A model generated the notes under the pieces. The model was not told the DNA's origin, did no database searches, and saw only the letters and a program-made list of their open reading frames with translations. The position numbers and the translations under genes are program-made. DNA of 64,000 nt from Roseateles oligotrophus. GTDB lineage: Bacteria > Pseudomonadota > Gammaproteobacteria > Burkholderiales > Burkholderiaceae_C. Positions 17,516 through 54,276 of the stretch are shown piece after piece. The stretch spans positions 868,001-932,000 of the forward strand of contig NZ_JACHLP010000001.1 in assembly GCF_014204525.1 (NCBI RefSeq), in the 5' to 3' direction. Positions within the stretch are counted from its first letter, which is position 1, and the number at the start of each line of letters is the position of its first letter.

Positions 17516-17713
17516 GGCTGGATTGTAGGCAGTCGCACCCACCCGCCGAATTAGGGGGCGGGGCCGCACAAGTGCCCCCCGGGTTCTGAGCGAGAATCAG
17601 CGGAAAATACCTAAAAAGCAAAGGGCGATTCCCCTCAATCGCTCGGCAAAGCAGTACCGAAACAACCGTGTCCGGCGTGCATTCCGCCAAAGACACCAAG
17701 GAGCAAGGGATCA
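17516..17713. promoter_or_regulatory. Divergent ubiJ/epsB control region
   Basis: A 198-bp gap between divergent genes, which must carry promoters for both ubiJ-ubiB and the first polysaccharide operon. A 6-bp inverted repeat GCGATT-N6-AATCGC (17625-17642) is a possible operator. AAGGAG (17698-17703) and AGGGA precede the epsB ATG. I could not find a convincing sigma-70 or sigma-54 promoter by eye. Confidence 0.35.
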
Positions 17714-19102
17714 ATGTTCGAGGATAGAAGCTACAAAAGAACGTTCTATAGCGCGCCGCAATCCGTCGAATCCTTGGTCGCAGCCTTTCTTGAGCCCGGC
17801 ATCATCGTGCTGTGCTACTTGGCCGTTAACGCCTATTTTGGCGAGCCCATTCTGCGCTCCAGCCTCACCCTCTGCCTGCTGGTCTTCGCCCTCACCTTCC
17901 CTGGCCGCAACCGTTTTGCCGACCAGACGATCAGCGCCATCATCGATGTGCTGGGGGCCTGGCTGGCCTTGCTGGCCATCCTGGCGCTGTGCGGCTATGC
18001 CACCAATAGCATGGGTTATTTTGATGACCATGTGCTGCTGTGGTGGGCGGCGATCACGCCCGTGCTGCAGGTCTTTGCGCTGGAGATCGGCAAACATATC
18101 CGCCGCCACCTCAACCGCGGCACCCGCCGCGGCGCGGTCATCGTCGGCGCCGGCCCCCTGGGCGTCAAAGTGGCCCGCGCCCTGCGTGACAGCCCGGACA
18201 AAGGCGTCGACTTCCTGGGCTATTTCGATGACCGCCAGGACGACCGCCTGCACACCGACGCCGCCGGCATGCTGAAGGGCACGCTCAGCGAATTGAGTGA
18301 GTTTGTGCGCCAGAACAATGTGCGCGAGGTCTACATCACCCTGCCCCTGGGCTCGCAACCCCGCATCGTGCAGTTGCTGGAGCAGATCCAGGGCACCACC
18401 GCCTCGCTGTTCTTCGTGCCCGATGTGTTCGGCATCAGCATCATCCAGGGCCGCTTGCAGGATATGAATGGTGTGCCGGTGGTGGGCATTTGCGAAACCC
18501 CCTTCACGGGCACGAACGAACTCGTCAAGCGCATCAGCGATGTGGTGCTGGCCAGCCTGATCCTGCTGCTGATCTCGCCCCTGCTGCTGGCCGTGGCCCT
18601 GGGCGTGAAACTCAGCTCGCCCGGCCCCATCATCTTCAAGCAGCGCCGCAACGGCCTGGACGGCGAAGAAATCATCGTCTACAAATTCCGCTCCATGCGC
18701 ACCCAGGACAACGGCGCCGTGGTCAGGCAAGCCACCAAGGAAGACCCGCGGGTGACCCCCTTCGGCGCCTTCATACGCCGCACCTCGCTGGACGAATTGC
18801 CGCAATTCATCAATGTGCTGCAAGGCCGCATGAGCATCGTCGGCCCCCGCCCCCACGCGGTGGCGCACAACGAGGAGTACCGCAAGCTGATCAAGGCCTA
18901 TATGGTGCGCCACAAGGTCAAGCCCGGCATCACCGGCTGGGCCCAGGTTAACGGCTTGCGCGGCGAAACCGACACCATCGACAAGATGAAGGCCCGGGTC
19001 GAACTGGACCTGGAGTATTTGCGCAACTGGTCTTTGGCCCTGGATCTGCAAATCATCGTGCGTACCGCCCGCCTGATGGTGTTTGACCGCAATGCCTACT
19101 GA
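17714..19102 (+). CDS. epsB: Undecaprenyl-phosphate hexose-1-phosphate transferase (initiating sugar transferase)
   Basis: A 462-residue polyprenyl glycosylphosphotransferase of the WcaJ/EpsB type. It transfers hexose-1-phosphate, probably glucose, from UDP-sugar to undecaprenyl phosphate and so starts the repeat unit at the inner membrane. Several N-terminal TM helices come first. A Rossmann-like CoA-binding segment (GAVIVGAGPLGVKVARAL, near 135-152) follows, then a last TM helix (residues ~280-300). The catalytic bacterial sugar transferase domain contains FKQRRNGLDGEEI, VYKFRSMR, RRTSLDELPQF, MSIVGPRPH and KPGITGWAQVNG. It is the first gene of the plus-strand block and is followed by epsL, as in other exosortase-B-associated loci. 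Confidence 0.93.
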   Translation: MFEDRSYKRTFYSAPQSVESLVAAFLEPGIIVLCYLAVNAYFGEPILRSSLTLCLLVFALTFPGRNRFADQTISAIIDVLGAWLALLAILALCGYATNSMGYFDDHVLLWWAAITPVLQVFALEIGKHIRRHLNRGTRRGAVIVGAGPLGVKVARALRDSPDKGVDFLGYFDDRQDDRLHTDAAGMLKGTLSELSEFVRQNNVREVYITLPLGSQPRIVQLLEQIQGTTASLFFVPDVFGISIIQGRLQDMNGVPVVGICETPFTGTNELVKRISDVVLASLILLLISPLLLAVALGVKLSSPGPIIFKQRRNGLDGEEIIVYKFRSMRTQDNGAVVRQATKEDPRVTPFGAFIRRTSLDELPQFINVLQGRMSIVGPRPHAVAHNEEYRKLIKAYMVRHKVKPGITGWAQVNGLRGETDTIDKMKARVELDLEYLRNWSLALDLQIIVRTARLMVFDRNAY

Positions 19103-19133
19103 ATCCGAACAAACCAACAAGAAAAGGACTGCC

Positions 19134-20378
19134 ATGTCTGCGACAAACACCCACAAAATCCGCCGACTGAGCAGCGCCCTGGGCCTGCTGGGTGCCGCCT
19201 GCCTCGGCAGCAGCACGGCATGGGCCGAGCAAAGCCCGTATTACTACGGCGCCTCGCTGGGCCTGAACCATGTGTCCAATATCTACCGGGTGAACAACAA
19301 CGCCAATAGCGACGAGGTGGCCACCGCCTCCCTGCTGGCCGGCATCGACCAACACCTGGGCCGCCAGCGCCTGTATGCCGACGCCTCGGTACAGGCCAAC
19401 CGCTACCGCAAAAGCAGCACGCTGAACAATCTGGGCTACAACCTCAAAGGAGGTTTGGACTGGTCCACGATCGGGCGGCTTTCGGGCACCGTCAGCGCCA
19501 GCGCCAACCGCGCTTTGGCTAACTACAATATTGATCGCAACAACACCACGCCGATTTTCGCCAAGAACATCGAGACCAATAACCGCCTGGACAGCACGGT
19601 CCGCCTGGGCCTGGTGACCAAGCTAACGCTGGAGGGCAGCGTGGGCCTGGTGCAACGACGCTTCACGCTGGACCAGTTCAACCGCTTTGAATACGATCAA
19701 AAGCGCTATGCCGTGGACCTGTTCTACAAGCCCAGTGCCGATTTGAGGTTTGGGCTCGGCCTGAGTCGATCCAACACCGATTACCCGCGCTACGAGGCCA
19801 TTGGCACCCCTGTCACCGACTACAAGCCCGCGGCCTATAAACGCGATGACATCAATCTGACCAGCGATTGGACGATCAGCGGCAAAAGCGCCTTGTATGC
19901 GCGGCTGAGTTCGGGCAAATCCAAGCAAACCGTCGGAGGCAACAACGACTTCTCGGGCGTGACGGGCCAACTGACCTGGAACTGGCGCCCCACGGCGCGC
20001 TGGAATGTCTCGACCTCGGTGAGCCGGGACACCGGCCTGGAATCCTCGCTATTCCAGAACGGCCCCGTCACCAGCAGCTACGACCAGGACCGCCTGACCA
20101 ATGCGCTGCAGGTGAACGCCAGCTACGAACTCAGCGCCAAAGTCACCCTCACCGGCGGCATGAGCTTCAGCAACACCGACCGGGCCAAGTCGCTAGCGAC
20201 CAATTCCCTCAAGGACTTCGACAAGGACAAGGCCTACAACCTGGGCCTGCGCTGGGCCTATTCGCGCGGCATCACGCTGGGCTGCCAAGTCGGCGTCCAG
20301 TCACGCGACAGCAGCGTCGCCACCTACGCCTACTCGGCCAATAACTACGGTTGCTACGGCCAGATCCTGGTCAACTGA
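19134..20378 (+). CDS. epsL: Exosortase-B-associated outer-membrane beta-barrel protein EpsL
   Basis: A 414-residue predicted outer-membrane protein. The signal peptide (about residues 1-31) ends near SSTAWAEQ. The rest is alternating beta strands rich in aromatic residues, Asn, Ser and Thr, with internal barrel-like repeats such as LSARVTL-type and YNLGLRWAYSRG strands. It matches the EpsL family, proposed outer-membrane component of XrtB-linked polysaccharide systems. The start at 19134 is set by GAAAAGGA just upstream; a start at 19092 is also open. The end LVN is compatible with a barrel but lacks the usual terminal Phe. The gap to epsB is 31 bp, so the two are co-transcribed. Confidence 0.82.
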   Translation: MSATNTHKIRRLSSALGLLGAACLGSSTAWAEQSPYYYGASLGLNHVSNIYRVNNNANSDEVATASLLAGIDQHLGRQRLYADASVQANRYRKSSTLNNLGYNLKGGLDWSTIGRLSGTVSASANRALANYNIDRNNTTPIFAKNIETNNRLDSTVRLGLVTKLTLEGSVGLVQRRFTLDQFNRFEYDQKRYAVDLFYKPSADLRFGLGLSRSNTDYPRYEAIGTPVTDYKPAAYKRDDINLTSDWTISGKSALYARLSSGKSKQTVGGNNDFSGVTGQLTWNWRPTARWNVSTSVSRDTGLESSLFQNGPVTSSYDQDRLTNALQVNASYELSAKVTLTGGMSFSNTDRAKSLATNSLKDFDKDKAYNLGLRWAYSRGITLGCQVGVQSRDSSVATYAYSANNYGCYGQILVN

Positions 20379-20391: not shown

Positions 20392-21429
20392 GTGACAAAA
20401 CCCACCATCCTGCTGACCGGCGCCACCGGCTATATCGGCTCCCACACCTGGCTGGCTTTGCAAGCCGCGGGCTATGCGGTCGTCGGTATCGACAATTTCT
20501 CCAACAGCTCGGCCGAGGTACTGACTCGCCTGGAGCGCCTGAGCGGCCGGACGCCGGTGTTCGAGCAAGTGGACGTCTGCGACGCGGCCGCGCTGGGCGC
20601 CGTGTTTGCCCGCCATCGCCCGGCAGCCGTCGTGCACTTCGCGGCCTTCAAGGCCGTGGGCGAATCGACCGCCAAGCCGCTGGACTACTACCGCAACAAT
20701 ATCGGCGGCCTGATCAATACCTGCGAGGTGATGCGCCAGCATGGCTGCACCCGTATCGTCTTCAGCTCCAGTGCCACGGTCTACGGCGTGCCCGAGAAGC
20801 TACCCCTGGACGAGCAGGCCGCGCTGTCGGCCGTCAACCCCTACGGCGCCACCAAGCTGATGGGCGAGACGATTCTGCGCGATCTGGGTGCCGCAGAGCC
20901 GGCCTGGCAAACCGCCGCCCTGCGCTACTTCAACCCGGTGGGCGCGCACGAGAGCGGCCTGATCGGCGAGGATCCCAGCGGCATCCCCAACAACCTGATG
21001 CCTTTTGTGGCCCAGGTCGCCGTGGGCCGCCGCGCGCGCCTGCAGGTCTTTGGCAATGACTACGCCACGCATGACGGCACCGGCGTGCGCGACTACATCC
21101 ATGTGCAGGATCTGGCCGAGGGCCATGTGGCGGCGCTGCGCTTCCTGCTGGCGGGAAGCGAGTCCATCACCGTCAACCTGGGCACCGGCCAGGGCTATAG
21201 CGTGCTCGATCTGGTCAAGGCCTACGAGGCCGCCAGCGGACGCGCCGTGCCCTACGACATCGTGGCCCGCCGGGCCGGCGATGTGGCGGCCTGCTATGCC
21301 GATCCGCAACTGGCCAAGGACAAGCTGGGCTGGCAGGCCAAGCACGATCTGGCCCGCATGTGCGAAGACAGCTGGCGTTGGCAAAGTCTGAATCCCAAGG
21401 GGTTTGCGCAACAAGAAATTTCGGCCTAA
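20392..21429 (+). CDS. galE: UDP-glucose 4-epimerase
   Basis: Interconverts UDP-glucose and UDP-galactose (NAD-dependent, cytoplasmic). An extended short-chain dehydrogenase fold: nucleotide motif TGATGYIGSH at residues 9-18, active-site Ser-Ser-Ser at 125-127, and the YxxxK pair Y151/K155 in NPYGATKLMGE. The substrate segment GVRDYIHVQDLAEGH is typical of GalE. The GTG start lies 13 bp after the epsL stop. It supplies UDP-Gal for the polysaccharide. Confidence 0.94.
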   Translation: MTKPTILLTGATGYIGSHTWLALQAAGYAVVGIDNFSNSSAEVLTRLERLSGRTPVFEQVDVCDAAALGAVFARHRPAAVVHFAAFKAVGESTAKPLDYYRNNIGGLINTCEVMRQHGCTRIVFSSSATVYGVPEKLPLDEQAALSAVNPYGATKLMGETILRDLGAAEPAWQTAALRYFNPVGAHESGLIGEDPSGIPNNLMPFVAQVAVGRRARLQVFGNDYATHDGTGVRDYIHVQDLAEGHVAALRFLLAGSESITVNLGTGQGYSVLDLVKAYEAASGRAVPYDIVARRAGDVAACYADPQLAKDKLGWQAKHDLARMCEDSWRWQSLNPKGFAQQEISA

Positions 21430-21450
21430 ACAGACCTAAGCAAGATAACA

Positions 21451-22902
21451 ATGACTCAGCTGAATGAATCCATCCTGGTCCAACCGGTCATCATGGCGGG
21501 CGGCAGCGGCACCCGCTTGTGGCCGCTTTCGCGCGCCCGCTACCCCAAGCAATTCCTGATCCTGTCGGGCAATACCAGCTTGTTTCAGCAGGCCGCAACA
21601 CGCTTGGCGGCCTTGGCCGCCGGCGACCTTGCCCTGGCCAAGCCCTTGATCGTCGGCAATGAAGAACACCGCTTCCTGGTGCTGGACCAATTGCAGGAGT
21701 CCGGCCAGGAGCCCAGCGCCGTGCTGCTGGAGCCGGTGGGCCGCAACACCGCGCCGGCCCTGACCCTGGCGGCCCTGCAGGCGCTTGAAGGCGGGCAGGA
21801 TCCGGTGCTGGTGGTGACGCCGGCCGACCAGACCGTCACCCGACCCGAGGCCTTCACCACCAGCCTGCAGCAGGCCGTGCGCCTGGCGGCGGACGGAACC
21901 ATCGTCATCCTGGGCATCAAGCCCGACCGGGCCGAAACCGGCTTTGGCTATATCCGCAGCCATCTGGATGGCGCGAGCCTGGCGGTCGAGCAATTCGTCG
22001 AGAAGCCCGATGCCGCCACCGCCGAACGTTATGTGGCCGACGGCAATTACTGCTGGAACAGCGGCATGTTTGTGCTGCGCGCCAGCCGCTGGATCGAGGC
22101 CTTGCAGCGCTTCCGGCCGGACATCCTGGCGGCGACGCGCGCCGCCTTCGAGGCCCGCAAGATCGACGCCAAATTCATTCGCCCGGGCAAGGCCGAGTTC
22201 GCCGCCATTCCTTCGGAATCGGTGGACTACGCGGTGATGGAGCGCTGCCCCGGCAGCGAGTTCCCCCTGCGCATGCTGGCCCTGGATGCGGGCTGGAGCG
22301 ATCTGGGCGCCTGGGACGCCGTCTGGCAGGTCTCGGACAAGGACGCCGAGGGCAATGCCTGCGTGGGCGACGCGATGATCAGCGATAGCAAGAACACCCT
22401 GGTCCACGCCAGCAGCCGCCTGGTCAGCGTGGTTGGGCTGCAAGACGTGGTGGTGGTGGAGACGGCCGACGCCGTGCTGGTCAGCGACCGCGCCCGCAGC
22501 CAGGACGTGAAACACATCGTCGCCCGCCTGGACGCCGCCGGGCGCGAGGAACAAAGCCTGCACCGCAAGGTGCACCGGCCCTGGGGCTGGTACGACAGCA
22601 TAGACTCCGGCGCGCGCTTCCAGGTCAAGCGCATCATGGTCAAGCCCGGCGCCACGCTGAGCCTGCAGATGCACCACCACCGGGCCGAGCATTGGGTCGT
22701 CGTCTCCGGCACGGCCGAGGTCACCAATGGCGACAAGGTCCAGTTGCTGAGCGAAAACCAGAGCACCTACATCCCCTTGGGCCAGACCCATCGCCTGGCC
22801 AATCCCGGCAAGGTGCCGCTGGAAATCATCGAGGTCCAGTCTGGCGCCTATCTGGGCGAGGACGATATTGTTCGCTTCGATGACAGCTACGGCCGCCAAT
22901 AG
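21451..22902 (+). CDS. manC: Mannose-1-phosphate guanylyltransferase / mannose-6-phosphate isomerase
   Basis: A bifunctional 483-residue enzyme that makes GDP-mannose. The N-terminal nucleotidyltransferase domain has the pyrophosphorylase signature [20 protein letters not shown] at about residues 15-34 and the FVEKP motif. The C-terminal cupin isomerase domain carries RPWGWYD, KPGATLSLQMHHHRAEHW with metal-binding His residues, and QTHRLANPG. Length is normal for the AlgA/ManC family. It lies 21 bp after galE in the same operon. No phosphomannomutase or GDP-mannose-modifying gene is present nearby. Confidence 0.94.
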   Translation: MTQLNESILVQPVIMAGGSGTRLWPLSRARYPKQFLILSGNTSLFQQAATRLAALAAGDLALAKPLIVGNEEHRFLVLDQLQESGQEPSAVLLEPVGRNTAPALTLAALQALEGGQDPVLVVTPADQTVTRPEAFTTSLQQAVRLAADGTIVILGIKPDRAETGFGYIRSHLDGASLAVEQFVEKPDAATAERYVADGNYCWNSGMFVLRASRWIEALQRFRPDILAATRAAFEARKIDAKFIRPGKAEFAAIPSESVDYAVMERCPGSEFPLRMLALDAGWSDLGAWDAVWQVSDKDAEGNACVGDAMISDSKNTLVHASSRLVSVVGLQDVVVVETADAVLVSDRARSQDVKHIVARLDAAGREEQSLHRKVHRPWGWYDSIDSGARFQVKRIMVKPGATLSLQMHHHRAEHWVVVSGTAEVTNGDKVQLLSENQSTYIPLGQTHRLANPGKVPLEIIEVQSGAYLGEDDIVRFDDSYGRQ

Positions 22903-22968
22903 CTGTTCGGCGGCGGATTTTGTCAGCCGTTTTTACCCATTAGAAAATCATCCTCGCAAGGAATTGTC

Positions 22969-24249
<1,281 letters not shown>

Positions 24250-24275
24250 TTTGTCCTTCTTGAGGCGCGCAAAAT

Positions 24276-25334
24276 ATGACTCTCCTCGTCACCGGCGGCG
24301 CCGGCTTCATCGGCAGCAATTTCGTGCTCGACTGGCTCAAATCCTCGGATGAGCCCATCGTCACCCTGGACGCGCTGACCTATGCCGGCAATCTGGAAAA
24401 CCTCGCCTCGCTGCAAGGCGATGCCCGCCACACTTTCGTGAAGGGCGATATCTGCGAGCGCGCCTTGGTGGATCAGCTGCTGAGCCAGCACCGGCCGCGC
24501 GCCCTGATCCACTTCGCGGCGGAGAGCCATGTGGACCGCTCCATCAGCGGCCCCGGCGCCTTTATGCGCACCAATATCGAAGGCACTTACACGCTGCTGG
24601 AGGCATCGCGCGCCTACTGGAGCGGCCTCGGCGATGTCGACAAGGCTGCATGGCGCTTCCACCATGTGTCGACCGACGAGGTCTACGGCTCTTTGAGCGA
24701 GCAAGACCCGCCCTTTGCCGAGACCAAGACCTACGAGCCCAACAGCCCCTACTCGGCCAGCAAGGCCGCCAGCGACCACCTGGTGCGCGCCTGGCACCAC
24801 ACCTACGGCCTGCCGGTGCTGACCACCAATTGCAGCAATAACTACGGGCCCTATCACTTCCCCGAGAAGCTGATCCCGCTGATGATCGTCAACGCCCTGG
24901 CGGGCAAGGCCCTGCCCATCTATGGTGACGGCAAGAATGTGCGGGACTGGCTGTTTGTGAGCGACCACGCCAGCGCCATCCGCGCCGTGCTCCAGGGCGG
25001 CCGCGTGGGCGAGACCTACAACATCGGCGGCTGGAACGAGATGAGCAATCTGGAGATCGTGCACACCGTCTGCGAGCTTCTCGATGAGCTGCGCCCCGAT
25101 GCAGCGGGCAGCTACAAGCGTCTGATCACTTTCGTCAAAGACCGCCCCGGCCACGACAGGCGTTATGCCATCGACGCCCGCAAGATCGAGCGTGAACTGG
25201 GCTGGCGCCCCGCCGAGACCTTTGCCACGGGCATTCGCAAAACGGTGCAGTGGTACTTGGACCACCCCGAGTGGGTGGTGCGCGTGCAAAGCGGCGCCTA
25301 CCGCGACTGGGTGGCCCAGCAATACCAAGCATGA
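24276..25334 (+). CDS. rfbB: dTDP-glucose 4,6-dehydratase
   Basis: Second step of dTDP-L-rhamnose synthesis. Short-chain dehydrogenase fold: NAD motif [10 protein letters not shown] (residues 6-15), catalytic Thr-Asp-Glu at 133-135 (VSTDEVYG) and Y159/K163 in [29 protein letters not shown] and the C-terminal [12 protein letters not shown] are diagnostic of RmlB. The length of 352 residues is usual. Its stop overlaps rfbD by four bases. Confidence 0.96.
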
Positions 25335-26212
25335 AGATTCTCTTGCTGGGCAAGAACGGCCAAGTGGGTTGGGAGCTGCAACGCGCCCTGGCGCCGCTGG
25401 GCGAGCTGATCGCGCTGGACCGCAGCGAGGGTGCCGACCTCGCCAACGCGCAGGCGCTGCAGGCCAAGGTCCGCGAAGTCGCCCCCCAAATCATCGTCAA
25501 TGCCGCGGCCTACACGGCGGTGGACAAGGCCGAGTCGGAGCAAGACCTGGCCCTGGCCATCAACGCCCATGCACCCGGCCTGCTGGCCCAGGAGGCCAAA
25601 CGCTCACGCGCCTTGCTGATTCACTACAGCAGCGACTATGTGTTTGACGGCAGCGGTGACGCACCTCGCAGCGAAGACGCGGCCACCGGCCCCTTGAGCG
25701 TCTACGGTCGCAGCAAATTGCAAGGCGAAGAGGCCATACGCGAAAGCGGCTGCCAACACCTGATCCTGCGCACCAGCTGGGTCTATGCCGCGCGCGGCGG
25801 CAACTTCGCCAAGACCATGTTGCGCCTGGCGGCAGAACGGGAACAACTCAAGGTCATCGCCGATCAGATCGGCGCGCCCACGGGTGCCGATCTCCTGGCC
25901 GACCTGACGGCACAGATGCTCGCACCAGCGCGAGCTCGGCCCGAACTCAGCGGCACCTATCACGCGGTGGCTAGCGGCGAAACCAGCTGGCATGCCTACG
26001 CGCGGCATGTGATCGCGTTCGCCCGCAGCCGGGGTCAGGTCTTGCGCGTGGCGCCGGATCAGGTGCTGGCCATCACTACCCGCGACTACCCCACGCCTGC
26101 CCAGCGCCCCCTGAACTCCCGCCTGTCCACGGCCAAGCTGCAAGCGGCCTTTGGCCTGCGCCTACCGCATTGGCAGCCCGGCGTGGAGCGTATGTTGACC
26201 GAAATTCTCTAG
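25331..26212 (+). CDS. rfbD: dTDP-4-dehydrorhamnose reductase
   Basis: Last step of dTDP-L-rhamnose synthesis, NAD(P)H-dependent. The start ATG at 25331 overlaps the rfbB stop (ATGA); the open frame upstream of it lies inside rfbB. The Rossmann motif is [12 protein letters not shown]. Active-site region: [10 protein letters not shown] and the YxxxK motif in [26 protein letters not shown] and [14 protein letters not shown] are typical of RmlD. 293 residues, 10 bp before rfbA. Confidence 0.95.
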
Positions 26213-46228: not shown

Positions 46229-47871
46229 GTACCAATCCTAGGCCTGAACACTTGCCGCTTCACCACCTTCACTTGACTGCTTACAGCCGGAAGAAATGCT
46301 TGTTTTTTAGCGAACCTAGTTAACACAAACACCATGCCGATGGCCAGTGAGGCCAACAACTGAACAGAAGAAACGTTAACGCTGGCATTGTTGTACAGGT
46401 AGCCAGAGCCAGTGAGCGCGATTGCTACAGCGCAAGACTCCGCCAGCGCAGACAAAGGCGGATCAGCCGCAAGCCGCTTTGCAAGGCTCAATGAACGAAC
46501 AAAAGCCAACACGAAGATTGCAGCCACCAAACCGCCGCCAACGACACCTAGATCCCAAAGCACCGTCGAAGCAGACGAAGTTTGCAACTGGAACACATAC
46601 TTCCGCGCCACTGTGCCCTTGCCAAACATGGAACTAAATCCTTTGCTTGCCGCAGGCCCGTAACCAACCAATGACTCAACCAGGCGGCCTCGTCCGATAT
46701 TTTCTTGGCTCCAAGTCTTAAGTGCGCCCGTACGACTCAACTCGCCGGTCTCCCTATTATAGGTATATGTATCTTGCTCCGCCTTTGTCGCAAACTCAAA
46801 TATCTCTGACAGGCTTTTTGAGCCCGTCTGCTTATTACTGTAGTGCAATACTTGATAAACCAACAACAAGCCAACGACAAACGCCAAGGTTGCCAATAGC
46901 CAAGCAGCAGCACTGACTGCCGACTTCAAGACCTTCGCCCTATTGAGAATAAGCAAAGCGAGAGGCAGAAAAATAACGACGACCTTAACTTCCGCTAAAA
47001 ATATCGAAGCCATGGCAGCGGCATTGCTCAACCAGGCCAGCCGAGGCGAAATTTGCTGACTCCGCAGCAACGCCAGATTGCTTGCGATACCAAAGCAAAG
47101 GAACAACGCCAGGGCACCGCTGGCGCCCCCCCCCTCCGGATTGCCGCCAAAGCTGCCAACCACCGCATCCCAAGCAATGCCGGTGGCACCAAATGCCGTC
47201 GATGTCCCTTTCTCAACAAACAAGTATTGATACAAGCACAAAGGCAACTGAGCGATAAGAAACCACGGAATGCTGCGCCAGACTTTCAACCAAAACTCGC
47301 GCGGGGCGACCGCCAACGTGACAGCTGCGGTTAAGGCCAAAGGAAAAACATACTGCTTAACACCAACCAATGCCTGCATTGGCGGGTTTTTATTGACTAG
47401 TGCTGATGCAAAAACCAGCACGACAAAGGCAATAAGCAGGAAACCAAGTAGATCCACCCCGTCTGATCGCTCACCAGGTTTAGCAGCTCGCATTGCGTCC
47501 AGAGGAACTCGCGCCAGCATGACCGCCAAGATCAGAAATGGCATCCAATGCGCCTGTTCCACTCGCGCAAAATACTGCAGGCAACCCGCCACGATCATAC
47601 TGACTACCAGTAACCAGGCAATCAAGGTGGTCGATTGCATCAGCAGAACCAAAGGTGCCACGATGATCGCCACGATCAAAATAGCGTACTGAATTGAACC
47701 TAGCCCCATGATTAGGCCGCAAAGCACGGCCACAATCATCATAAAAATAGGTAGGCCAAGCTTTATCGGAGCCTTCTTCCGACTACTGCCGCGCGCGGTG
47801 ACTTGGGCCTTTGCTTCGCTACGAAGCCGCAGCTTCGTTCGCCAAGGACTCAGATTAAATGGCAGATTCAT
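46225..47871 (-). CDS. wzy: Wzy-like polysaccharide polymerase / O-antigen ligase-family membrane protein
   Basis: A 548-residue integral membrane protein. A basic cytoplasmic N-terminus (about 40 residues) is followed by ~10-12 hydrophobic helices and one large periplasmic loop near residues 340-430 containing Tyr/Lys/Thr-rich sequence. This topology is that of Wzy polymerases and WaaL-type ligases. Position beside wzx and the chain-length genes favours polymerase. The start ATG at 47871 lacks a clear ribosome site. It lies 25 bp after epsI. The wzx symbol pairing is by role, not by close sequence match. Confidence 0.8.
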   Translation of the reverse strand: MNLPFNLSPWRTKLRLRSEAKAQVTARGSSRKKAPIKLGLPIFMMIVAVLCGLIMGLGSIQYAILIVAIIVAPLVLLMQSTTLIAWLLVVSMIVAGCLQYFARVEQAHWMPFLILAVMLARVPLDAMRAAKPGERSDGVDLLGFLLIAFVVLVFASALVNKNPPMQALVGVKQYVFPLALTAAVTLAVAPREFWLKVWRSIPWFLIAQLPLCLYQYLFVEKGTSTAFGATGIAWDAVVGSFGGNPEGGGASGALALFLCFGIASNLALLRSQQISPRLAWLSNAAAMASIFLAEVKVVVIFLPLALLILNRAKVLKSAVSAAAWLLATLAFVVGLLLVYQVLHYSNKQTGSKSLSEIFEFATKAEQDTYTYNRETGELSRTGALKTWSQENIGRGRLVESLVGYGPAASKGFSSMFGKGTVARKYVFQLQTSSASTVLWDLGVVGGGLVAAIFVLAFVRSLSLAKRLAADPPLSALAESCAVAIALTGSGYLYNNASVNVSSVQLLASLAIGMVFVLTRFAKKQAFLPAVSSQVKVVKRQVFRPRIGT

Positions 47872-47896: not shown

Positions 47897-48577
47897 TCAG
47901 GTGCCAAATACCCGCGCGCGCCCGTCAAGCGCCATCGCCTGATGCAAATCAGAAATGAATTTCTGCTGTACCCGCTGCGCACGCTCAGGCTCGTTATCAA
48001 TCGAAGAAACCCTCACCAGCATGCCATCTGGAATGATTCCACGAATGCCAAAGCGCAGTTGGGCAAGCTTTTGCTCCGACGAGCTCGTCGCCACCTTGTC
48101 ACCCACGACAACCCAGTAAGTGATCGGCTCGTCCCGGCCGCCTAGCTTGGCCATCAACTGCTTGACATGCAGTTTCTTGGGCGCCCCGATATCCAGATCA
48201 GCGGTACGTCCCGACATGATCTGGAACCCTTGTGCCGGGTAGCACACCTCGGGACGGTGTGCACGCGTGCCATCCGATTGATCCCCCCCGTAGGCGACCG
48301 ACAGCATGATGCGCTCGCCTTTCTGGGAAATATAGGTACGACTCAAGACCTGGTTATAAATTGCATCCAGCTTGGCCTGCACATCGGGCGCCGGGAGAAT
48401 CACCGGCATGCTGTGGTCTTCACGCCATTCACCGAATTGCAGCGGAAATGCCTGACCCAGATTCGGCTGCCCAATTTCGTCGACCAAATGCTTGGTCGGG
48501 TGCCAGACATAGGCTGCCGCCGCAGCTGAGACCGCCAGCGCCAGTACCACGATACCTCGCACAATCGCCGCACTCAC
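47897..48577 (-). CDS. epsI: EpsI, exosortase-B-associated protein
   Basis: A 226-residue protein of the EpsI family, found fused to or beside exosortases in polysaccharide loci. One N-terminal TM helix (GIVVLALAVSAAAAAYVW) is followed by a periplasmic domain with FGEWREDHSMPVILP, AYGGDQSDGTRAHRPEVCYP (the RPExCY motif) and ITYWVVVGD. Its biochemical function is not settled. I chose the GTG at 48577: it comes 1 bp after the xrtB stop and has GAGGGG upstream. The open frame to 48610 would overlap xrtB. Confidence 0.87.
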   Translation of the reverse strand: MSAAIVRGIVVLALAVSAAAAAYVWHPTKHLVDEIGQPNLGQAFPLQFGEWREDHSMPVILPAPDVQAKLDAIYNQVLSRTYISQKGERIMLSVAYGGDQSDGTRAHRPEVCYPAQGFQIMSGRTADLDIGAPKKLHVKQLMAKLGGRDEPITYWVVVGDKVATSSSEQKLAQLRFGIRGIIPDGMLVRVSSIDNEPERAQRVQQKFISDLHQAMALDGRARVFGT

Positions 48578-48578
48578 A

Positions 48579-49496
48579 TCAAGCCCCTCGTCGCTGGCCA
48601 GCAAAAACAAAGCTCAGCAGCTTGTCAACAAACAACATCAACATCAGCGCCACCATGAACAAAACCATGCCAGCAAAACCATGCACAAAACCTTGCCCGG
48701 CCTCGTCACCAAAATGATAAGTCACCATCACCAAAATCATCACACGCACAATATTTGCACAGAATGATATGGGGACAAGCAATAGAGCAAGCGTTACGTT
48801 TCTCCCTGCCGAGGTGTAGTTCATGAGGTTCATGTACAACAAGCCCAGCGCTTCCAAGGTGAACATGGAGTTCAAACCTGCGCAAGCATCAGCCACCAGC
48901 AGTTGATACTGCCCCACCGTCAACATGACGCCCGAGCGGCCAATCGGATATCCCAGCCAATACATCAAGCTGCTGGCGACGCTGGACACAGCCATTTTCA
49001 AGGGGCTAGTGACCGAGCTGACCAATACGTCGGGCAAGGGCACCATGAACAACAGGAAGAACAGTGGGAACCACGCCTTCCGAAGCGCCCCACGCCCACC
49101 GAACAGCAGCATGATCGAGATGAGGACAAAAATCTGCGACCCGACCTCAAACAGCAAAATATCCTGCGATCTTCCAAATGCGTAGAACAACAGCGCAATA
49201 CATAAGAAAGGATAGGCCAGCCAAGGCAATGGCTTCGTCGCTGCAGCTGCAATTTCATGCCGCTGCCGATATAAAAGCCAGAAACTCACGGCCAAGATAA
49301 TAGGGCCATGGCCTTGCTCGTCTGAAACCCAGACGCTGTGCGACAAGGCCCAGTAACTGGGCAGATACAAAACCAGAAATGCCAGTGCCACCAGCACGAA
49401 TGCCCGCAGATCAAACTGCGCAGGGAAAATCGCTGGAGCGACGCTGCGAGGCTGATCGGTCGTGGTATTTCCCACCATATCAGAACTCGTTGACAA
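48579..49496 (-). CDS. xrtB: Exosortase B (XrtB)
   Basis: An inner-membrane transpeptidase-like protein that in such systems is expected to recognise PEP-CTERM proteins and couple them to surface material. 305 residues with about 8 TM helices. The conserved triad is visible: Cys205 in VADACAGLNS, Arg251 in ANIVRV and His272 in GFVHGFAG. Helices between carry LFFLLFMVPLPDVLV, typical of the family. The start overlaps the epsG stop by 17 bp. No protein with a PEP-CTERM C-terminal signal is encoded in this window, so its substrates must lie elsewhere. Confidence 0.92.
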   Translation of the reverse strand: MSTSSDMVGNTTTDQPRSVAPAIFPAQFDLRAFVLVALAFLVLYLPSYWALSHSVWVSDEQGHGPIILAVSFWLLYRQRHEIAAAATKPLPWLAYPFLCIALLFYAFGRSQDILLFEVGSQIFVLISIMLLFGGRGALRKAWFPLFFLLFMVPLPDVLVSSVTSPLKMAVSSVASSLMYWLGYPIGRSGVMLTVGQYQLLVADACAGLNSMFTLEALGLLYMNLMNYTSAGRNVTLALLLVPISFCANIVRVMILVMVTYHFGDEAGQGFVHGFAGMVLFMVALMLMLFVDKLLSFVFAGQRRGA

Positions 49497-50340
49497 TCAC
49501 GCCAACCACTTTGGCCGAAGAGGCAGAAACAGCGTCAACCAGTTCCTGCAGGGCAGCAACCCGGGATGAGTCCTTGCGCGCCACCACCAAGGCACCGCCA
49601 CATCTCGCCGCAATCACGCTGGCGTCAGAGCCCAGATAGGCCGCGGGGGAATCGACAATCACATGGTCAAACTTGCTCACCAACTCGTGCAGCAATAAAC
49701 CAAAGGCCGGGCGTTCCACCAACTCCACCGGGTTTGGCGGCGTCACACCTACCGGCAAGACAAACAAACTCGGAATGCCTTTGACCTGCTGTATCACCTT
49801 TGCTTCGGCTCGTCCGGACAAAATTCCTGACAAACCAGATGTATTGCTAAGTCCGAAAACTTCGTGCTGCCGCGGCCCGCGCAAGTCGGCGTCCACCAGC
49901 AATGTTCGCCCACCCAGTTGCGCCAGGGTGACGGCCAGGTTGGCCGCAAAATAGGTCTTGCCGTCGCCGGAATCCGGGCTCACCACGGCCAGAGCACGAC
50001 GGGGAGCTTCCGCCTCACCAAAGAAGCGCATGATGATCTGGCTTCGAATCGCCCGAAACACTTCGGCCTGCGGTGAAAATGGGTGATTCAGTGCAATCAG
50101 TTCGGAGCTGAAGTTCTGCTGCTCACTCGGCGCGTAGGAATAATGAAATTGCTGCGACAGGGCAAACAAAACATCATCTGAGCTGGCGAGTCCAAGCGCA
50201 ACCGCAGCCTCCCCAAACTTGACCTTATTGTCGCGCTGGTAGGTGAGAATTTTCTCAACTTGCTCAGCACCAAGATTGCGAGTTTCGGCAATGATGTCGC
50301 CAATAGAACGATCTTGAACAGTCGATTCGCTTGCGGTCAT
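49480..50340 (-). CDS. epsG: Chain-length determinant tyrosine kinase-like ATPase EpsG with MshEN-like N-terminus
   Basis: Cytoplasmic partner of the EpsF co-polymerase, a BY-kinase-like P-loop ATPase. Residues 1-75 resemble the MshEN/GspE N-terminal fold (RSIGDIIAE, then KFGEAAVALGLASSDDVLFA). The ATPase domain has Walker A SPDSGDGKT (K128), Walker A' LLVDADLRGPR (147-157) and VIVDSPAA. The protein ends at VVGVIVNEF with no tyrosine-rich tail, so autophosphorylation as in Wzc is doubtful. ATG at 50340 chosen, giving 286 residues; the frame is open 12 codons upstream. It overlaps xrtB and follows epsF by 70 bp. Confidence 0.88.
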   Translation of the reverse strand: MTASESTVQDRSIGDIIAETRNLGAEQVEKILTYQRDNKVKFGEAAVALGLASSDDVLFALSQQFHYSYAPSEQQNFSSELIALNHPFSPQAEVFRAIRSQIIMRFFGEAEAPRRALAVVSPDSGDGKTYFAANLAVTLAQLGGRTLLVDADLRGPRQHEVFGLSNTSGLSGILSGRAEAKVIQQVKGIPSLFVLPVGVTPPNPVELVERPAFGLLLHELVSKFDHVIVDSPAAYLGSDASVIAARCGGALVVARKDSSRVAALQELVDAVSASSAKVVGVIVNEF

Positions 50341-50410
50341 GATCTTTTTCAATCCTTGGCATTTGGCCTGAAGCACAAACGCAATCCAGTACGGGCTAAC
50401 TGCCCAATAT

Positions 50411-51829
50411 TTATCGAGGCGCGGGAGTGGAATTGCCCAGCACCCTTTGCTTCATCAAATTAGGAAGTGCCCGACGGCTTTGTGCGCCCGGCTTTGACAG
50501 GACGCCAATGACAGGCAGGTCCAGTGCCATTGCAATGTCATCGCTGCTACGAACACGCCGGTCCATCATTTCCATGACCATGATGGTTCCCAGCGCCAGC
50601 ATGCCGCCGACAAGGAAAGACAGAACCATGTTCAGCAGTTTCTTGGGAGATGCAGGATCAACCGGAGGAACGGCCGGACTCAGCAAATTGACACTGCTTT
50701 GAGTCGTCTGGCTTTCGAGGTTCGTCTGGTTCAGACGCGCCAGCACCGCATCGTAGGAGCGCTGGGCGTTCTCCAACTCGCGAACCAAAACTGCGCCCTC
50801 GTCTCGCACCGCCTTCATCGCCAATACCTTGGTACGCTGGGCATCCAGGTCGGCCCGCACCTGCGCTTCGCGCTGCTTGCTGATGTTGTAGCTGACCGTA
50901 ACCCCACCTGTGATTCTCTTGATTTCAGAATCCATGCGCGCGCGCAGTTCGCTCAAATTGGCCTTGAGCTCAATCACCTGTGGGTGGTTATCGCCGAGCT
51001 TGACGTTCACCTCTTGCAAACGCGCTTCTTGACGAGAGATATCAGATTTCAGGCCGGCAACGACCGGGCTGTTGAAAACCTCTTGGATTTTGTCCCCAGA
51101 ACTCCCTTGCGCCTGTACCTGCCGGCTACCGGACTCGGAAGACATGGCCTGCAACGCCACCAATTGCGTCGAGAGTTCATTCAAACGGGTGTTTTCGATA
51201 TCAAGGCGCTCATCCGCCGCGGTGATACCTTTTTCGCTCTGGAATGCGCTCAGACGATTTTGGGCTTTTTCCACCGCTTCGCGCGCTTCCTTGGATCGAA
51301 CTTCAAAGAAGCTGCTGTATTGACGAGCGGGATCAACCCTCAATTCAAGCGATGTTTCGATATAGGCCTGGACAAAGGCATTGGCCAACCCAGCCGCAAA
51401 GCGCGGATCGGGCGCACGGTACGAAATGGAAACAACGTTGGATTCGCGCGAGGGCTTCACATCCATATTCTTTTGGAATGAGTCGGCAATCCAGGCATCC
51501 ATACTTCCCTGGCCACCGGTTGCCTCCATCCATTGCGCGCGAACTTCGGGATTCTCATTCAGCTTCAAATTCCGAACGACTCGCTGAGCGACCCGATCGC
51601 TTTGAATAATGTCGACTTGCGTCGCCATAAAACCCGGCGACGGCATGCCCCCGTAGGCCATCACCGAAAGTGGATCGGGCTTCACATCAATCACGACGCT
51701 TGCTGTCGCTGCATATTGCTTTGGCAGCAGCAGCGTGATCACCAAGGTCGTCAGCAATGTGGCGCCCAAAACCAGGGTCCCCACCAGCCATCGGGCTCGC
51801 AGAATTGAGAAAAGCTGGGTGAGATTCAT
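50411..51829 (-). CDS. epsF: Chain-length determinant protein EpsF (Wzz-type co-polymerase)
   Basis: A 472-residue polysaccharide co-polymerase. TM1 is near residues 14-34, and a long periplasmic alpha-helical region (200-400) has coiled-coil character. Pro-rich TM2 segment: PVDPASPKKLLNMVLSFLVG. A cytoplasmic tail of about 55 residues includes SSDDIAMALDLPVIG. It controls chain length and activates EpsG, and interacts with the outer-membrane EpsE channel. GAGG precedes the ATG. epsE ends 9 bp upstream. Confidence 0.92.
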   Translation of the reverse strand: MNLTQLFSILRARWLVGTLVLGATLLTTLVITLLLPKQYAATASVVIDVKPDPLSVMAYGGMPSPGFMATQVDIIQSDRVAQRVVRNLKLNENPEVRAQWMEATGGQGSMDAWIADSFQKNMDVKPSRESNVVSISYRAPDPRFAAGLANAFVQAYIETSLELRVDPARQYSSFFEVRSKEAREAVEKAQNRLSAFQSEKGITAADERLDIENTRLNELSTQLVALQAMSSESGSRQVQAQGSSGDKIQEVFNSPVVAGLKSDISRQEARLQEVNVKLGDNHPQVIELKANLSELRARMDSEIKRITGGVTVSYNISKQREAQVRADLDAQRTKVLAMKAVRDEGAVLVRELENAQRSYDAVLARLNQTNLESQTTQSSVNLLSPAVPPVDPASPKKLLNMVLSFLVGGMLALGTIMVMEMMDRRVRSSDDIAMALDLPVIGVLSKPGAQSRRALPNLMKQRVLGNSTPAPR

Positions 51830-51838: not shown

Positions 51839-52729
51839 TTAGAACAAGCTCTCTTTGACATACACAACGTCACCATCCTTCAACGGCGCTTCCATGGGCA
51901 GTTGCAGGGCTTCAACCTTGCCTTCGCTGTCCTTGCGGTTCACGCGGATGCCTTTTTCGGTGCCGCGCAGGGTGATGCCACCACCGGTGGCCAGGCTTTG
52001 CATGACGGTCATGCCACGCTCCAGCTTCATGGGGCCGGGGCGTTGCACCTCGCCGTAGATGTAGACCATGGGCGCACGGTCGACCCAGATGACGTCGCCG
52101 TTCTGAATGAAGATGTCGTTGGCGGCGCCGCCAGCGGCAAAAATGGCCGGGAAGTCGATTTCAACGCGGTAGGGCTGGCCTGCGCGCTTGCCCGTAACCA
52201 CCAGCACCTCGGCACCGGTACTGGCCACACCACCGGCGGTCGCCACCAAATCGGTCAGACGCATATCTGCCGTTTCGATGGGGTAGCGGCCGGGGCGGTT
52301 CACATTGCCCAGCACGCTGGCCTGATTGCCTTTGACCTGCAGTACGACGATGGTGGTCTGCGGGTTCTTGACGAAGCTGCCTTTTCTGAGGCCTTCGGAG
52401 ATCAGGTTTTCGGCCTGGGTCACGCTCAGGCCGCCGACCTTGATATTGCCCAGCAGGGGGTAGGACACCAGACCGTTCTCGGAAACGCGGGTCTCCAAGG
52501 TGAGGTCGGGATTCTGATAGACGGAGACTCGCATCACATCACCCGAGCCCAGACGGTACTCGGCGCTATTGCTGCTCGCCGCGCTTGCGGGCACGGCAGC
52601 GGCCGTTTGAGCGGCGGCCGGAGCCGCCGACATCGCCAGCACGGCCGACAAGCTCAAGGCCAGGCCGGTGAGGCCCAGTGGGCGAATCCTGCGGGTGTGC
52701 TCTTGCTGCATGCGCGTCAACATCTTCAT
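51839..52729 (-). CDS. epsE: Polysaccharide export outer-membrane protein EpsE (Wza family)
   Basis: A 296-residue exported protein of the outer-membrane polysaccharide exporter family. The signal peptide (about 1-42) ends near SAAPAAAQ; there is no lipobox, unlike Wza. The PES domain begins YRLGSGDVMRVSVYQNPDLT and continues ISEGLRKGSF. SLBB-like repeats follow: ASVLGNVNRPGRYPI and VYIYGEVQRPGPMKLERG. The start at 52729 gives the best ribosome spacing (AGAGGA); ATG at 52738 is an alternative. It lies 19 bp after epsD. Confidence 0.91.
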   Translation of the reverse strand: MKMLTRMQQEHTRRIRPLGLTGLALSLSAVLAMSAAPAAAQTAAAVPASAASSNSAEYRLGSGDVMRVSVYQNPDLTLETRVSENGLVSYPLLGNIKVGGLSVTQAENLISEGLRKGSFVKNPQTTIVVLQVKGNQASVLGNVNRPGRYPIETADMRLTDLVATAGGVASTGAEVLVVTGKRAGQPYRVEIDFPAIFAAGGAANDIFIQNGDVIWVDRAPMVYIYGEVQRPGPMKLERGMTVMQSLATGGGITLRGTEKGIRVNRKDSEGKVEALQLPMEAPLKDGDVVYVKESLF

Positions 52730-52748
52730 CGATCCCATCCTCTTCAAA

Positions 52749-53756
52749 TCACTTCAGACCCATGCCCTTGGAGATGTCGGCGGCGTTCAAGCCACCGGCA
52801 CTGGCGGGCGCCTCGGCAGGCGCCGTCACAGCGGCCGGAGCAGCGCTGGCGGCGGGCGCCGAGGCGGCGCCGGCGGCACCTTCGCCGAACTTACCGACGT
52901 ATTCCACCTTGGCCGCGTCGCGCAAGGCCTTGATGTCTTTTTGCACCTGTTCACCCTTGCGCTGATTGAGCAGGAAGGCTTCGATGGCGGGCTTGGCGCG
53001 GGCTTCGTCCACCGGCTGGCTGCGCGAGCCCACCAGGAAGAGCACGGTCAGGCCGGTCGGGGTTTGCGTAACGGCGGAGTCGCCGTCCTTCATGCGGGCA
53101 ATCGCGTCCAGGCCGGCCAGGGGCAGTTGCTCGGCGGCGCGCACGGCCTGGTTGCCGGTGAACTTGAAGTCATTGGCCTTCAGGAACTCGGCAAACTCGG
53201 CCATGCTCTTGGCGGTTTGCAGCTTGCCGCGGATCTGCTCGAACTGCTCGGGCTTGGCCTCGATGGAGACTTCTTGCAGGCTGTAGATGCGGCGGTCTTT
53301 GAAGAGCGCGGGCTTCTCGTTGTAGTACTTGGAGATTTCTTCGTTGCTGGGCTTGGCCACCGACTCGCCGATGCGCTCGACGTAGGCGCGCGAGATGATT
53401 TCGCGCTTGGCGGCTTCGATCTGCTGCACCACGCGGGGGTCGCGGTCTAGCTTCAGTTCCTGGGCCTTTTGCACGGCCAGTTCCTGGTCGATCAGACGCT
53501 CCAGTACTTGCTTGCTGGCGGCTTCGGCCTGCTCGGGCTTGAGGCCTTGCTGGCGTTGCAGCACGTAGTTGATCTGATGAACGGTGATTTCTTCCTTGTT
53601 GACCTTGGCGGCGGTCTGCGAAGCCTTGTCGGACTTCTTGCCATCACCGCAGCCGGTCAGGGCCACGGCCACCACGGCCAGCGCCACGGCAGCGACCCGG
53701 AAGTTGGCAAAAGCACTCATGGCGTGGATTTGTTTTTGGTCGTTCTTCAAGTACAT
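52749..53756 (-). CDS. epsD: EpsD family peptidyl-prolyl cis-trans isomerase lipoprotein
   Basis: A 335-residue predicted periplasmic lipoprotein (lipobox LTGC, Cys36) with a SurA/PpiD-like N-terminal chaperone region (HQINYVLQRQQGL, LERLIDQELAVQKAQEL) and a parvulin-type domain. It probably helps fold or insert an envelope component of the system, such as EpsE or EpsL. The tail (~300-335) is Ala/Pro-rich. The ATG at 53756 has AAAAGAGA upstream; ATG at 53720 is also open, and the long frame to 53915 is non-coding. It is the first gene of the long minus-strand operon ending at 36520. Confidence 0.88.
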   Translation of the reverse strand: MYLKNDQKQIHAMSAFANFRVAAVALAVVAVALTGCGDGKKSDKASQTAAKVNKEEITVHQINYVLQRQQGLKPEQAEAASKQVLERLIDQELAVQKAQELKLDRDPRVVQQIEAAKREIISRAYVERIGESVAKPSNEEISKYYNEKPALFKDRRIYSLQEVSIEAKPEQFEQIRGKLQTAKSMAEFAEFLKANDFKFTGNQAVRAAEQLPLAGLDAIARMKDGDSAVTQTPTGLTVLFLVGSRSQPVDEARAKPAIEAFLLNQRKGEQVQKDIKALRDAAKVEYVGKFGEGAAGAASAPAASAAPAAVTAPAEAPASAGGLNAADISKGMGLK

Positions 53757-54276
53757 GGCAAATTCTCTTTTCTGCACGAAGCGCCGTTTTTCCAGCGCAA
53801 CACATAGATGCTGCAAAGCAGCGCCCGGCCCAGCCTTCATAGGACGGCCGAGTGTAACTTTGGAAAATGACAATTGCCCTCCCCAAGCTCCCTCTTTCGT
53901 CGGGCCCGAACTCACGGTTTACCCGCGGTTACAAGCCTTTGCGATGCGGCCCTAACCCGTCCGGCAGGGCCATGGCGAAGCAAGCCGACGATGCACGCCT
54001 ACCCCGGTGCAAACGCCGAATCTGAGCGCAATTGTGCGGCGCCGCAAACCAGCGCCTCACAACGCCCAGCCAGGGTCAGGCCAGCTGCCTCTCCAGGCGT
54101 CTAGACCATATCGGGTTTCGAGGGGGCGCCACCCCCATGACTAAGGGGGGGCCAATGTGACGGAATACGAGGAAGTGCGGCTTTTATATGCGCCGGGCGG
54201 CAGGCAGACAGCGCATGAAGTCAGAGCAGGCGCGGCGACGGCAAAACGGAGCGATGCCCGGTGGCCGCTCAGCGCC
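53757..54276. promoter_or_regulatory. Leader and promoter region of the epsD operon; 3' flank of ubiE
   Basis: A 520-bp gap with no gene. Small open frames here lack coding character. It must hold the promoter of the operon epsD to heparinase and any terminator of ubiE. Visible structures: a GCTGC-AAA-GCAGC hairpin (53810-53822) in the epsD leader, the GGGGG-CGCCA-CCCCC dyad (54122-54136) and the palindrome GCGGCGCCGC near 54038. I found neither a clear sigma-70 or sigma-54 promoter nor a T-tailed terminator. Confidence 0.4.

What the first reader, a model, noticed from the sequence alone, without database searches (positions are those of the whole stretch)
17516..54276. Whole polysaccharide locus sits between ubiE and ubiJ of a ubiquinone operon
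Reading the minus strand, DUF971-ubiE (55448-54277) comes first, then 36.8 kb of polysaccharide genes, then ubiJ-ubiB (17515-15441), whose starts and stops still overlap. In E. coli ubiE-ubiJ-ubiB is one operon, and in related Burkholderiales I recall DUF971-ubiE-(Tim44-like)-ubiJ-ubiB. Order and strand are kept as expected after insertion of the locus into that operon, and the Tim44-like gene is absent. Such an event would uncouple ubiJB expression from ubiE and place it under a promoter shared with epsB.
Basis: partly seen in the sequence, partly recalled or inferred. Interest (0 to 1): 0.75.

Follow-up and report, generated by a model that had tools for sequence, protein, structure and literature searches.

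The report
Swappable sugar-coat locus beside ubiquinone genes
In one group of environmental bacteria, a large and partly exchangeable set of genes for an outer sugar coat sits at a fixed chromosome site between ubiquinone-making genes that related bacteria keep close together, and the downstream gene seems to manage because it carries its own tiny start signal.

Summary
Confirmed: ubiE and ubiJ-ubiB keep order and strand but lie 36.8 kb apart, with an exosortase-B (XrtB) polysaccharide locus between them. It is not private to this genome. In a 104-taxon UbiE+UbiB tree, 54 of 54 genomes of one weakly supported clade (named members mostly Sphaerotilaceae) carry polysaccharide genes beside ubiE and/or ubiJ; 0 of 35 other family genomes do. 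The usual order in those is ubiE-Tim44-ubiJ-ubiB. Clade members include relics (galE or manC only), and four keep Tim44 on the ubiE side, placing the insertion between Tim44 and ubiJ. This genome's remaining Tim44 gene is a separate paralog. The locus ends follow vertical descent; the middle differs even from a sister species. Three relatives hold XrtA-associated genes there.

The 'uncoupling' claim is probably too simple: a -10-like TACAAT lies 6-10 nt before the ubiJ start in 50 of 54 clade genomes, and a similar hexamer in 30 of 35 others, suggesting a leaderless or nearly leaderless ubiJ mRNA and an older transcription boundary. No promoter consensus or RNA data confirm it. Known kind of locus, new site.

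The parts
55035..55448 (-). DUF971 / GBBH-like_N protein gene, upstream of ubiE
   Evidence: PF06155 107.5 bits; start read from the translation
54277..55008 (-). ubiE
   Evidence: NF001240 391.7 bits, cut-off 378
53916..54276 (.). 361-bp ubiE-epsD gap; in R. gelatinosus L062, L053 and L095 the Tim44 gene lies between ubiE and the eps genes
52749..53915 (-). epsD, EpsD-type peptidyl-prolyl isomerase (conserved ubiE-side end)
   Evidence: TIGR02925 248.5 bits, cut-off 108.9
51839..52747 (-). epsE, polysaccharide export protein
   Evidence: TIGR03028 336.9 bits, cut-off 262.65
50411..51829 (-). epsF, chain length determinant
   Evidence: TIGR03017 550.5 bits, cut-off 422.75
49480..50376 (-). epsG-like tyrosine autokinase
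   Evidence: TIGR03029 289 bits, below cut-off 313.8
48579..49496 (-). epsH, exosortase B (XrtB)
   Evidence: TIGR03113 371.6 bits, cut-off 275
47897..48610 (-). epsI, B type
   Evidence: NF045609 270.3 bits, cut-off 220
44717..47871 (-). two polytopic membrane proteins, about 9 and 10 hydrophobic segments (Wzy- and Wzx-like by topology only, my inference); variable cassette
   Evidence: no Pfam or NCBIfam hit; hydropathy
36520..44665 (-). variable cassette: three group-1 glycosyltransferases, octopine-DH-like enzyme, protein weakly like CoA ligases (below cut-off), heparinase II/III-like protein
   Evidence: patchy nucleotide alignment to ten relatives
33615..36518 (+). heparinase II/III-like (DUF4962) protein, end of the variable cassette
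31461..33385 (+). UDP-GlcNAc 2-epimerase and WecG/TagA/CpsF glycosyltransferase
   Evidence: PF02350, PF03808
27669..31250 (-). three minus-strand genes: DUF535, UDP-glucose/GDP-mannose dehydrogenase family, NAD-dependent epimerase family
20392..27664 (+). galE, manC, UDP-glucose/GDP-mannose dehydrogenase family, rmlB, rmlD, rmlA, rmlC: sugar precursor genes of the ubiJ-side end
19083..20378 (+). EpsL-like outer membrane protein
   Evidence: TIGR03014 179.1 bits, below cut-off 275
17714..19102 (+). epsB / WcaJ-type initiating sugar-phosphate transferase
   Evidence: TIGR03023 504.9 bits, cut-off 410.75
17522..17527 (-). -10-like TACAAT, 6 nt before the ubiJ ATG
16994..17515 (-). ubiJ
15441..16997 (-). 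ubiB
   Evidence: NF003404 838.4 bits, cut-off 667

Best explanation
The interval between the ubiE unit and ubiJB is an ancestral, fixed docking site for an exosortase-linked polysaccharide locus in one clade of Burkholderiales (named members mostly Sphaerotilaceae). Most likely sequence: an XrtB locus entered once, between the ubi-linked Tim44 gene and ubiJ, in or near the ancestor of the clade. It then passed down mainly vertically at its two ends (epsD, epsE next to ubiE; epsB, epsL, galE, manC next to ubiJ), while the middle (epsF-epsI, flippase/polymerase, glycosyltransferases) was exchanged, probably by recombination between the conserved flanks. The ubi-linked Tim44 gene was later lost in the window's genus, and several lineages lost most of the locus and kept only galE or manC. 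Function (inferred from families): assembly and export of an exopolysaccharide probably containing rhamnose, mannose-derived or uronic sugars, plus exosortase sorting. ubiJB stays expressed because it has its own promoter just upstream of its start codon, probably giving a leaderless or nearly leaderless mRNA; that promoter probably predates the insertion. Shown: arrangement, distribution, relics, cassette difference, conserved element. Inferred: single insertion, recombination route, promoter activity, leaderless transcript, glycan and its function.
For: Distribution; polysaccharide genes beside ubiE and/or ubiJ in 54 of 54 clade genomes, 0 of 35 other family genomes, 0 of 15 outgroup loci. 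Clade. Vertical ends against mixed middle: distance correlation with UbiE+UbiB r=0.78 epsB, 0.75 galE, 0.71 epsD, 0.70 manC, 0.58 epsE, each above its permutation maximum; 0.31 epsH, below its maximum of 0.34. Cassette difference from sister species G004: ubiE 94%, epsD 94%, epsE 88% nucleotide identity; epsF, epsG, epsH 68-70% over 84, 87 and 34% of their length; no or partial alignment from epsI to hep1; wecG 93%, rmlB 91%. GC 0.525-0.564 over 38001-52000 against 0.60-0.70 in the other 2-kb steps of the window. Tim44 tree. Own promoter: hexamer 0-12 nt before an in-frame start in 50 of 54 (all TACAAT, 6-10 nt; shuffled text with real starts kept: mean 1.6, maximum 5) and in 30 of 35 others (mean 1.2, maximum 5); none within 25 nt of ubiE or ubiB starts (stricter pattern); of 33 window gene starts only ubiJ has one within 30 nt.
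Against: Monophyly of the 54 genomes is weakly supported (SH-like 0.62, UFBoot 59). epsH still shares 4 of 28 splits with the UbiE+UbiB tree (random maximum 2), so the middle is not wholly uncoupled. No sigma-70 promoter was called in 17400-17800. Four of 54 clade genomes lack the element (G037, L054, L074, L217; G037 has TAGAAT at that place). With the first, stricter pattern only 20 of 35 other family genomes had it; 30 came with the wider pattern. No expression data and no recombination breakpoint test.
Confidence: 0.78

Rival explanations
1. One reading: a lineage-specific insertion into a co-transcribed ubi operon, which uncoupled ubiJB from ubiE and put it under an epsB-shared promoter.
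For: Compact order in relatives; ubiJ and epsB are divergent across a 198-bp gap. In E. coli the three genes are described as considered an operon (PMC5581919, passages).
Against: Shared across the genus and the 54 clade genomes; a -10-like hexamer before ubiJ also in 30 of 35 other family genomes and a terminator-like hairpin before the ubiJ core in 23 of these 35, pointing to an older boundary.
Confidence: 0.12
2. Several independent insertions at a hotspot rather than one insertion with later loss.
For: Clade support is weak; XrtB-type and XrtA-associated gene sets both occur at the site; relics differ (galE, manC).
Against: Same two-ended layout and the same genes beside ubiJ in most members; galE, epsB, manC and epsD follow the UbiE+UbiB tree; 54 of 54 clade genomes have some trace and 0 of 35 other family genomes does.
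Confidence: 0.2
3. The conserved TACAAT before ubiJ is not a promoter but another element, such as a regulator site or a translation signal.
For: No sigma-70 call; no transcript data.
Against: -10-like sequence at the spacing expected for a start at or next to the ATG (6 nt in 29, 7 nt in 18 of 50), while most of the surrounding intergenic DNA is unconserved within the genus sample; no such element at ubiE or ubiB.
Confidence: 0.25

Closest known systems
Acinetobacter baumannii K locus (fkpA-lldP); recalled parallels from no call: E. coli galF-gnd, pneumococcal dexB-aliA
   Same: A polysaccharide locus at one fixed site between conserved genes, with many different gene sets (K locus: PMC9676051, passages).
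   Different: Here the flanks are ubiE and ubiJ-ubiB, the system is exosortase-linked, the two halves converge, and relics remain across a whole clade.
XrtB / EpsH-type PEP-CTERM exopolysaccharide loci (EpsH and EpsI of the exopolysaccharide locus of Methylobacillus sp. 12S; PMC1569441, passages)
   Same: EpsD, EpsE, EpsF, EpsH (XrtB) and EpsI B type pass their NCBIfam cut-offs.
   Different: EpsG- and EpsL-like proteins are below cut-off; glycosyltransferase content varies between relatives.
PEP-CTERM floc and biofilm loci of Aquincola tertiaricarbonis (PMC9850573) and psc1 of Rubrivivax gelatinosus (PMC3684757); passages
   Same: PEP-CTERM-associated polysaccharide loci in the same family; I infer XrtA type from EpsB2 (TIGR03013) and PrsK/PrsR. 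XrtA-associated genes occupy the ubiE site in L048, L060 and L092.
   Different: The window locus is XrtB type; neither paper's main text contains a word beginning 'ubi'.
E. coli ubiE-ubiJ-ubiB operon (PMC5581919, passages)
   Same: Same gene order; same strand here.
   Different: There ubiJ lies directly between ubiE and ubiB; here ubiE is 36.8 kb away.

Membership tests
XrtB exosortase exopolysaccharide locus | XrtB exosortase with EpsI B type | tested here: met
   TIGR03113 371.6 > 275; NF045609 270.3 > 220
XrtB exosortase exopolysaccharide locus | EpsD, EpsE, EpsF | tested here: met
   all over cut-off
XrtB exosortase exopolysaccharide locus | EpsG and EpsL at equivalog level | tested here: not met
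   289 < 313.8 and 179.1 < 275; still the best hits
XrtB exosortase exopolysaccharide locus | PEP-CTERM substrate proteins in the genome | not tested
   not searched
Fixed-site variable polysaccharide locus | Same conserved flanking genes in related genomes | tested here: met
Fixed-site variable polysaccharide locus | Conserved ends and variable middle | tested here: met
Fixed-site variable polysaccharide locus | Exchange by homologous recombination in the flanks | tested here: inconclusive
   sister species differ mainly in the middle; breakpoints not tested statistically
ubiE-ubiJ-ubiB operon | Adjacent genes | tested here: not met
   36.8 kb between ubiE and ubiJ
ubiE-ubiJ-ubiB operon | Co-transcription | not testable with these tools
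   no RNA data
Integrase-borne genomic island | Site at a tRNA, or an integrase/transposase in the locus | tested here: not met
   no tRNA in the window; no such family among the locus proteins scanned; an ancient insertion may have lost these marks

The most novel reading that the evidence does not exclude
The ubiE|ubiJ boundary is a clade-wide docking site at which whole exosortase systems (XrtB, or XrtA-associated) and their glycan cassettes are swapped. It was made safe by an older leaderless promoter of ubiJB; in compact relatives the same boundary also carries a terminator-like hairpin built around the ubiJ start codon, which would stop read-through RNA but not RNA started at the internal promoter.
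Probability: 0.45. Interest if true: 0.6.

Novelty: new member of a known kind. Interest (0 to 1): 0.45.

Why it matters
It gives a ready locus definition (everything between ubiE and ubiJ) for typing surface glycans of Roseateles and relatives, and a worked case of how a large variable locus settled inside a conserved housekeeping neighbourhood. It also predicts a leaderless or nearly leaderless ubiJ mRNA across one family and perhaps its sister group, which is directly testable.

Tried and rejected
Relocation of the ubi-linked Tim44 to contig C4: rejected, the C4 protein groups with second paralogs of two genomes that also keep a ubi-linked copy. A lineage-specific insertion: rejected. Shared CTAGGGG-like motif upstream of both epsD and epsB: rejected, 1 of 18 and 7 of 18 (chance sums 1.8 and 1.4). 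ORFs 28338-29339 and 29472-31217 as conserved unknown genes: rejected as shadows of minus-strand genes; their hits mark those antisense genes. Sigma-70 promoter by plain consensus: none found in two scanned stretches. My first pass at ubiJ starts misplaced starts in compact genomes and was replaced. Hairpin with T-run before ubiJ inside the clade: 1 of 54. In the window alone the scan tool listed three overlapping terminator-like sites at 17619-17642 on the minus strand (shuffle mean 0.8); I did not follow them.

Limits and rows dropped: the tree has 104 taxa; named loci without a paired UbiB sequence, or from a genome already present under a G handle, were left out (for example L033, L035, L036, L039, L041, L042, L044, L047, L048, L051, L052, L056, L059, L065, L088, L089, L090, L101). 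The UbiB search by handle was given 48 of the 80 named loci. The congruence test kept only hits over set identity (40-65%) and coverage (70%) limits: 30-48 of 54 genomes per gene. The classes rest on similarity to window proteins, not on family models. The 54-genome list was typed from the tree and then tested against it. UbiJ is poorly conserved in the 15 outgroup loci (core scores 28-82), so their ubiJ starts, and the 0 of 15 there (1 of 15 with the pattern and wider spacing), are uncertain. The genome-contig scan behind the named loci kept the best 80 of a capped list.
Full report
What is there. On the minus strand, DUF971 (55448-55035) and ubiE (55008-54277) are followed by a 36.8-kb block and then ubiJ (17515-16994) and ubiB (16997-15441). 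The block has two converging halves. The ubiE-side half runs with ubiE: epsD, epsE, epsF, epsG-like, epsH (exosortase B), epsI, two polytopic membrane proteins, then glycosyltransferases and modifying enzymes. The ubiJ-side half runs away from ubiJ: WcaJ-type epsB, EpsL-like protein, galE, manC, a UDP-glucose/GDP-mannose dehydrogenase family gene, rmlBDAC, wecB, wecG; three minus-strand genes are embedded in it. The halves meet between two heparinase-like genes at 36518/36520.

How common it is. I searched the own genome plus 98 relatives for UbiE, UbiB, Tim44 and exosortases and tallied the 99. Same genus (18): 8 with both genes on one contig, all with a 35-57 kb gap and an exosortase inside; 9 on different contigs, 5 of these with an exosortase within 8 kb of ubiE; 1 missing a match. 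Other genera of the family (41): 28 compact under 4 kb (27 with Tim44 between), 5 with 30-46 kb and an exosortase, 2 with 5-10 kb, 3 on different contigs, 3 missing a match. Other families of the order (40): 26 compact (8 with Tim44 between), 4 with gaps of 4-24 kb, none of which has any exosortase match, 3 on different contigs, 3 on opposite strands, 2 far apart, 2 missing a match.

Named genomes. Of the best 80 named ubiE loci (classes by similarity to window proteins): 31 compact with Tim44, 1 compact without, 21 with XrtB-type eps genes after ubiE, 3 with them after Tim44 (Rubrivivax gelatinosus L062, a Rhizobacter MAG L053, Caldimonas caldifontis L095), 2 mini loci, 6 with galE only, 1 with Tim44 and galE (L058, also rmlD), 1 with manC only, 3 with another eps type, and 11 unresolved. 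The other type is XrtA-associated: all proteins that I gave from these loci (6 from Sphaerotilus natans L092, 2 from Rhizobacter L060, 1 from Methylibium rhizosphaerae L048) pass the cut-off of an XrtA- or PEP-CTERM-associated family; the exosortase gene itself was not identified there. In M. rhizosphaerae ubiE, these genes, galE, ubiJ and ubiB lie on one contig within 61.5 kb.

History. In a UbiE+UbiB tree of 104 taxa the locus and relic genomes form one clade of 54, with the other 35 family genomes next to it. Support is weak (0.62; UFBoot 59). A direct count finds window-type polysaccharide genes within 12 kb of ubiE (downstream) or ubiB (upstream) in 54 of 54, 0 of 35 and 0 of 15 outgroup loci (for some genomes only shorter stretches were held). 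Of the genera named in the clade's records, Roseateles, Rubrivivax, Ideonella, Azohydromonas, Rhizobacter, Aquabacterium, Methylibium, Caldimonas and Scleromatobacter are listed under Sphaerotilaceae, with a Sphaerotilus/Leptothrix group; other records bear names such as Pelomonas, Paucibacter, Albitalea or Schlegelella, or no genus. Because Tim44 follows ubiE and precedes eps or relic genes in four genomes, the insertion point was between Tim44 and ubiJ. The window genome's only Tim44-family match groups (0.943) with second paralogs of G051 and G055, which also keep the ubi-linked copy, so the ubi-linked copy was lost here.

Exchange of the middle. Against sister species G004, nucleotide identity is 94% in ubiE and epsD and 88% in epsE, then 68-70% over part of epsF-epsH, none from epsI to the CoA-ligase-like gene, 67-71% over 64% and 48% of the next glycosyltransferase and hep2, none in hep1, and 83-93% from wecG to rmlB (the G004 contig ends in the dehydrogenase gene, so its ubiJ side was not compared there). 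The more distant G005 aligns in the interior (octopine-DH-like gene 82%, CoA-ligase-like 78%). Protein distances of epsB, galE, manC, epsD and epsE follow UbiE+UbiB (r 0.58-0.78, above their permutation maxima), while epsH does not (0.31, maximum 0.34), although it shares 4 of 28 splits (random maximum 2). The interior has lower GC.

Why ubiJB survives. In 16 aligned genus and near-genus sequences most of the roughly 200-bp gap upstream of ubiJ is unconserved, but CTACAAT just before the ATG is invariant. Across the clade TACAAT lies 6-10 nt before an in-frame start in 50 of 54 genomes, mostly 6 or 7 nt, which would place transcription start at or beside the A of ATG. In the other 35 family genomes a similar hexamer lies 6-9 nt before the start in 30. 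Shuffled text with the real starts kept gives means of 1.6 of 54 and 1.2 of 35; a stricter pattern finds 50 and 20, and none before ubiE or ubiB. Of the 35, 23 also have a hairpin plus T-run with an in-frame start codon inside it (shuffle mean 0.9); one of them (L103) was called on a different stem. Stems in L066, L080 and L219 differ in sequence yet still pair, and those of L078 and L111 are extended. In the 15 outgroup loci the hexamer is 0 of 15, but ubiJ is hard to place there, and 2 of 15 have a hairpin. So a ubiJ promoter most likely predates the insertion. This is a sequence prediction: the consensus scan found no sigma-70 promoter.

Literature. Searches listed no paper whose title or abstract start describes a polysaccharide locus between ubiE and ubiJ; only open-licence papers are held, most hits were seen as listings, and I read passages of five papers, none whole. 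The kind of system is known; this site and its clade-wide history appear not to be described in what I searched.

Noticed in passing
L069, L070, L077, L098 and other compact loci, around the ubiJ start: A 7-12 bp stem-loop with the ubiJ start codon inside, followed by a T-run, in 23 of 35 family genomes outside the clade; possibly a terminator that only read-through RNA can form.
   Followed up: partly
L048, L060, L092 after ubiE: XrtA-associated polysaccharide genes occupy the ubiE site instead of XrtB-type ones.
   Followed up: partly
L043, L046, L049, L054, L067, L072: In galE-only relics galE runs with ubiE and ubiJ, the reverse of its direction in full loci, which restores a one-strand gene row.
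   Followed up: no
window 22969-24249 (+) and 28710-30059 (-): Two UDP-glucose/GDP-mannose dehydrogenase family genes in one locus on opposite strands.
   Followed up: no
window 33615-38562: Two heparinase II/III-like proteins encoded tail to tail with a 1-nt gap at the convergence of the two halves.
   Followed up: no
L039 4904 and 10001: In Roseateles toxinivorans DUF971 lies about 5 kb upstream of ubiE, so a second insertion may have split that pair.
   Followed up: no
L111 and L199 (Lampropedia aestuarii): Tim44-ubiJ-ubiB stay together, but ubiE lies on another stretch without them.
   Followed up: no
window 57255-58220 (-): Protein with an NYN domain and an OST-HTH/LOTUS domain near the ubi genes.
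   Followed up: no
window 13837-15510 (+): Long ORF with no Pfam hit that overlaps a sodium/solute symporter-like gene on the minus strand (13873-15327); probably a shadow.
   Followed up: partly
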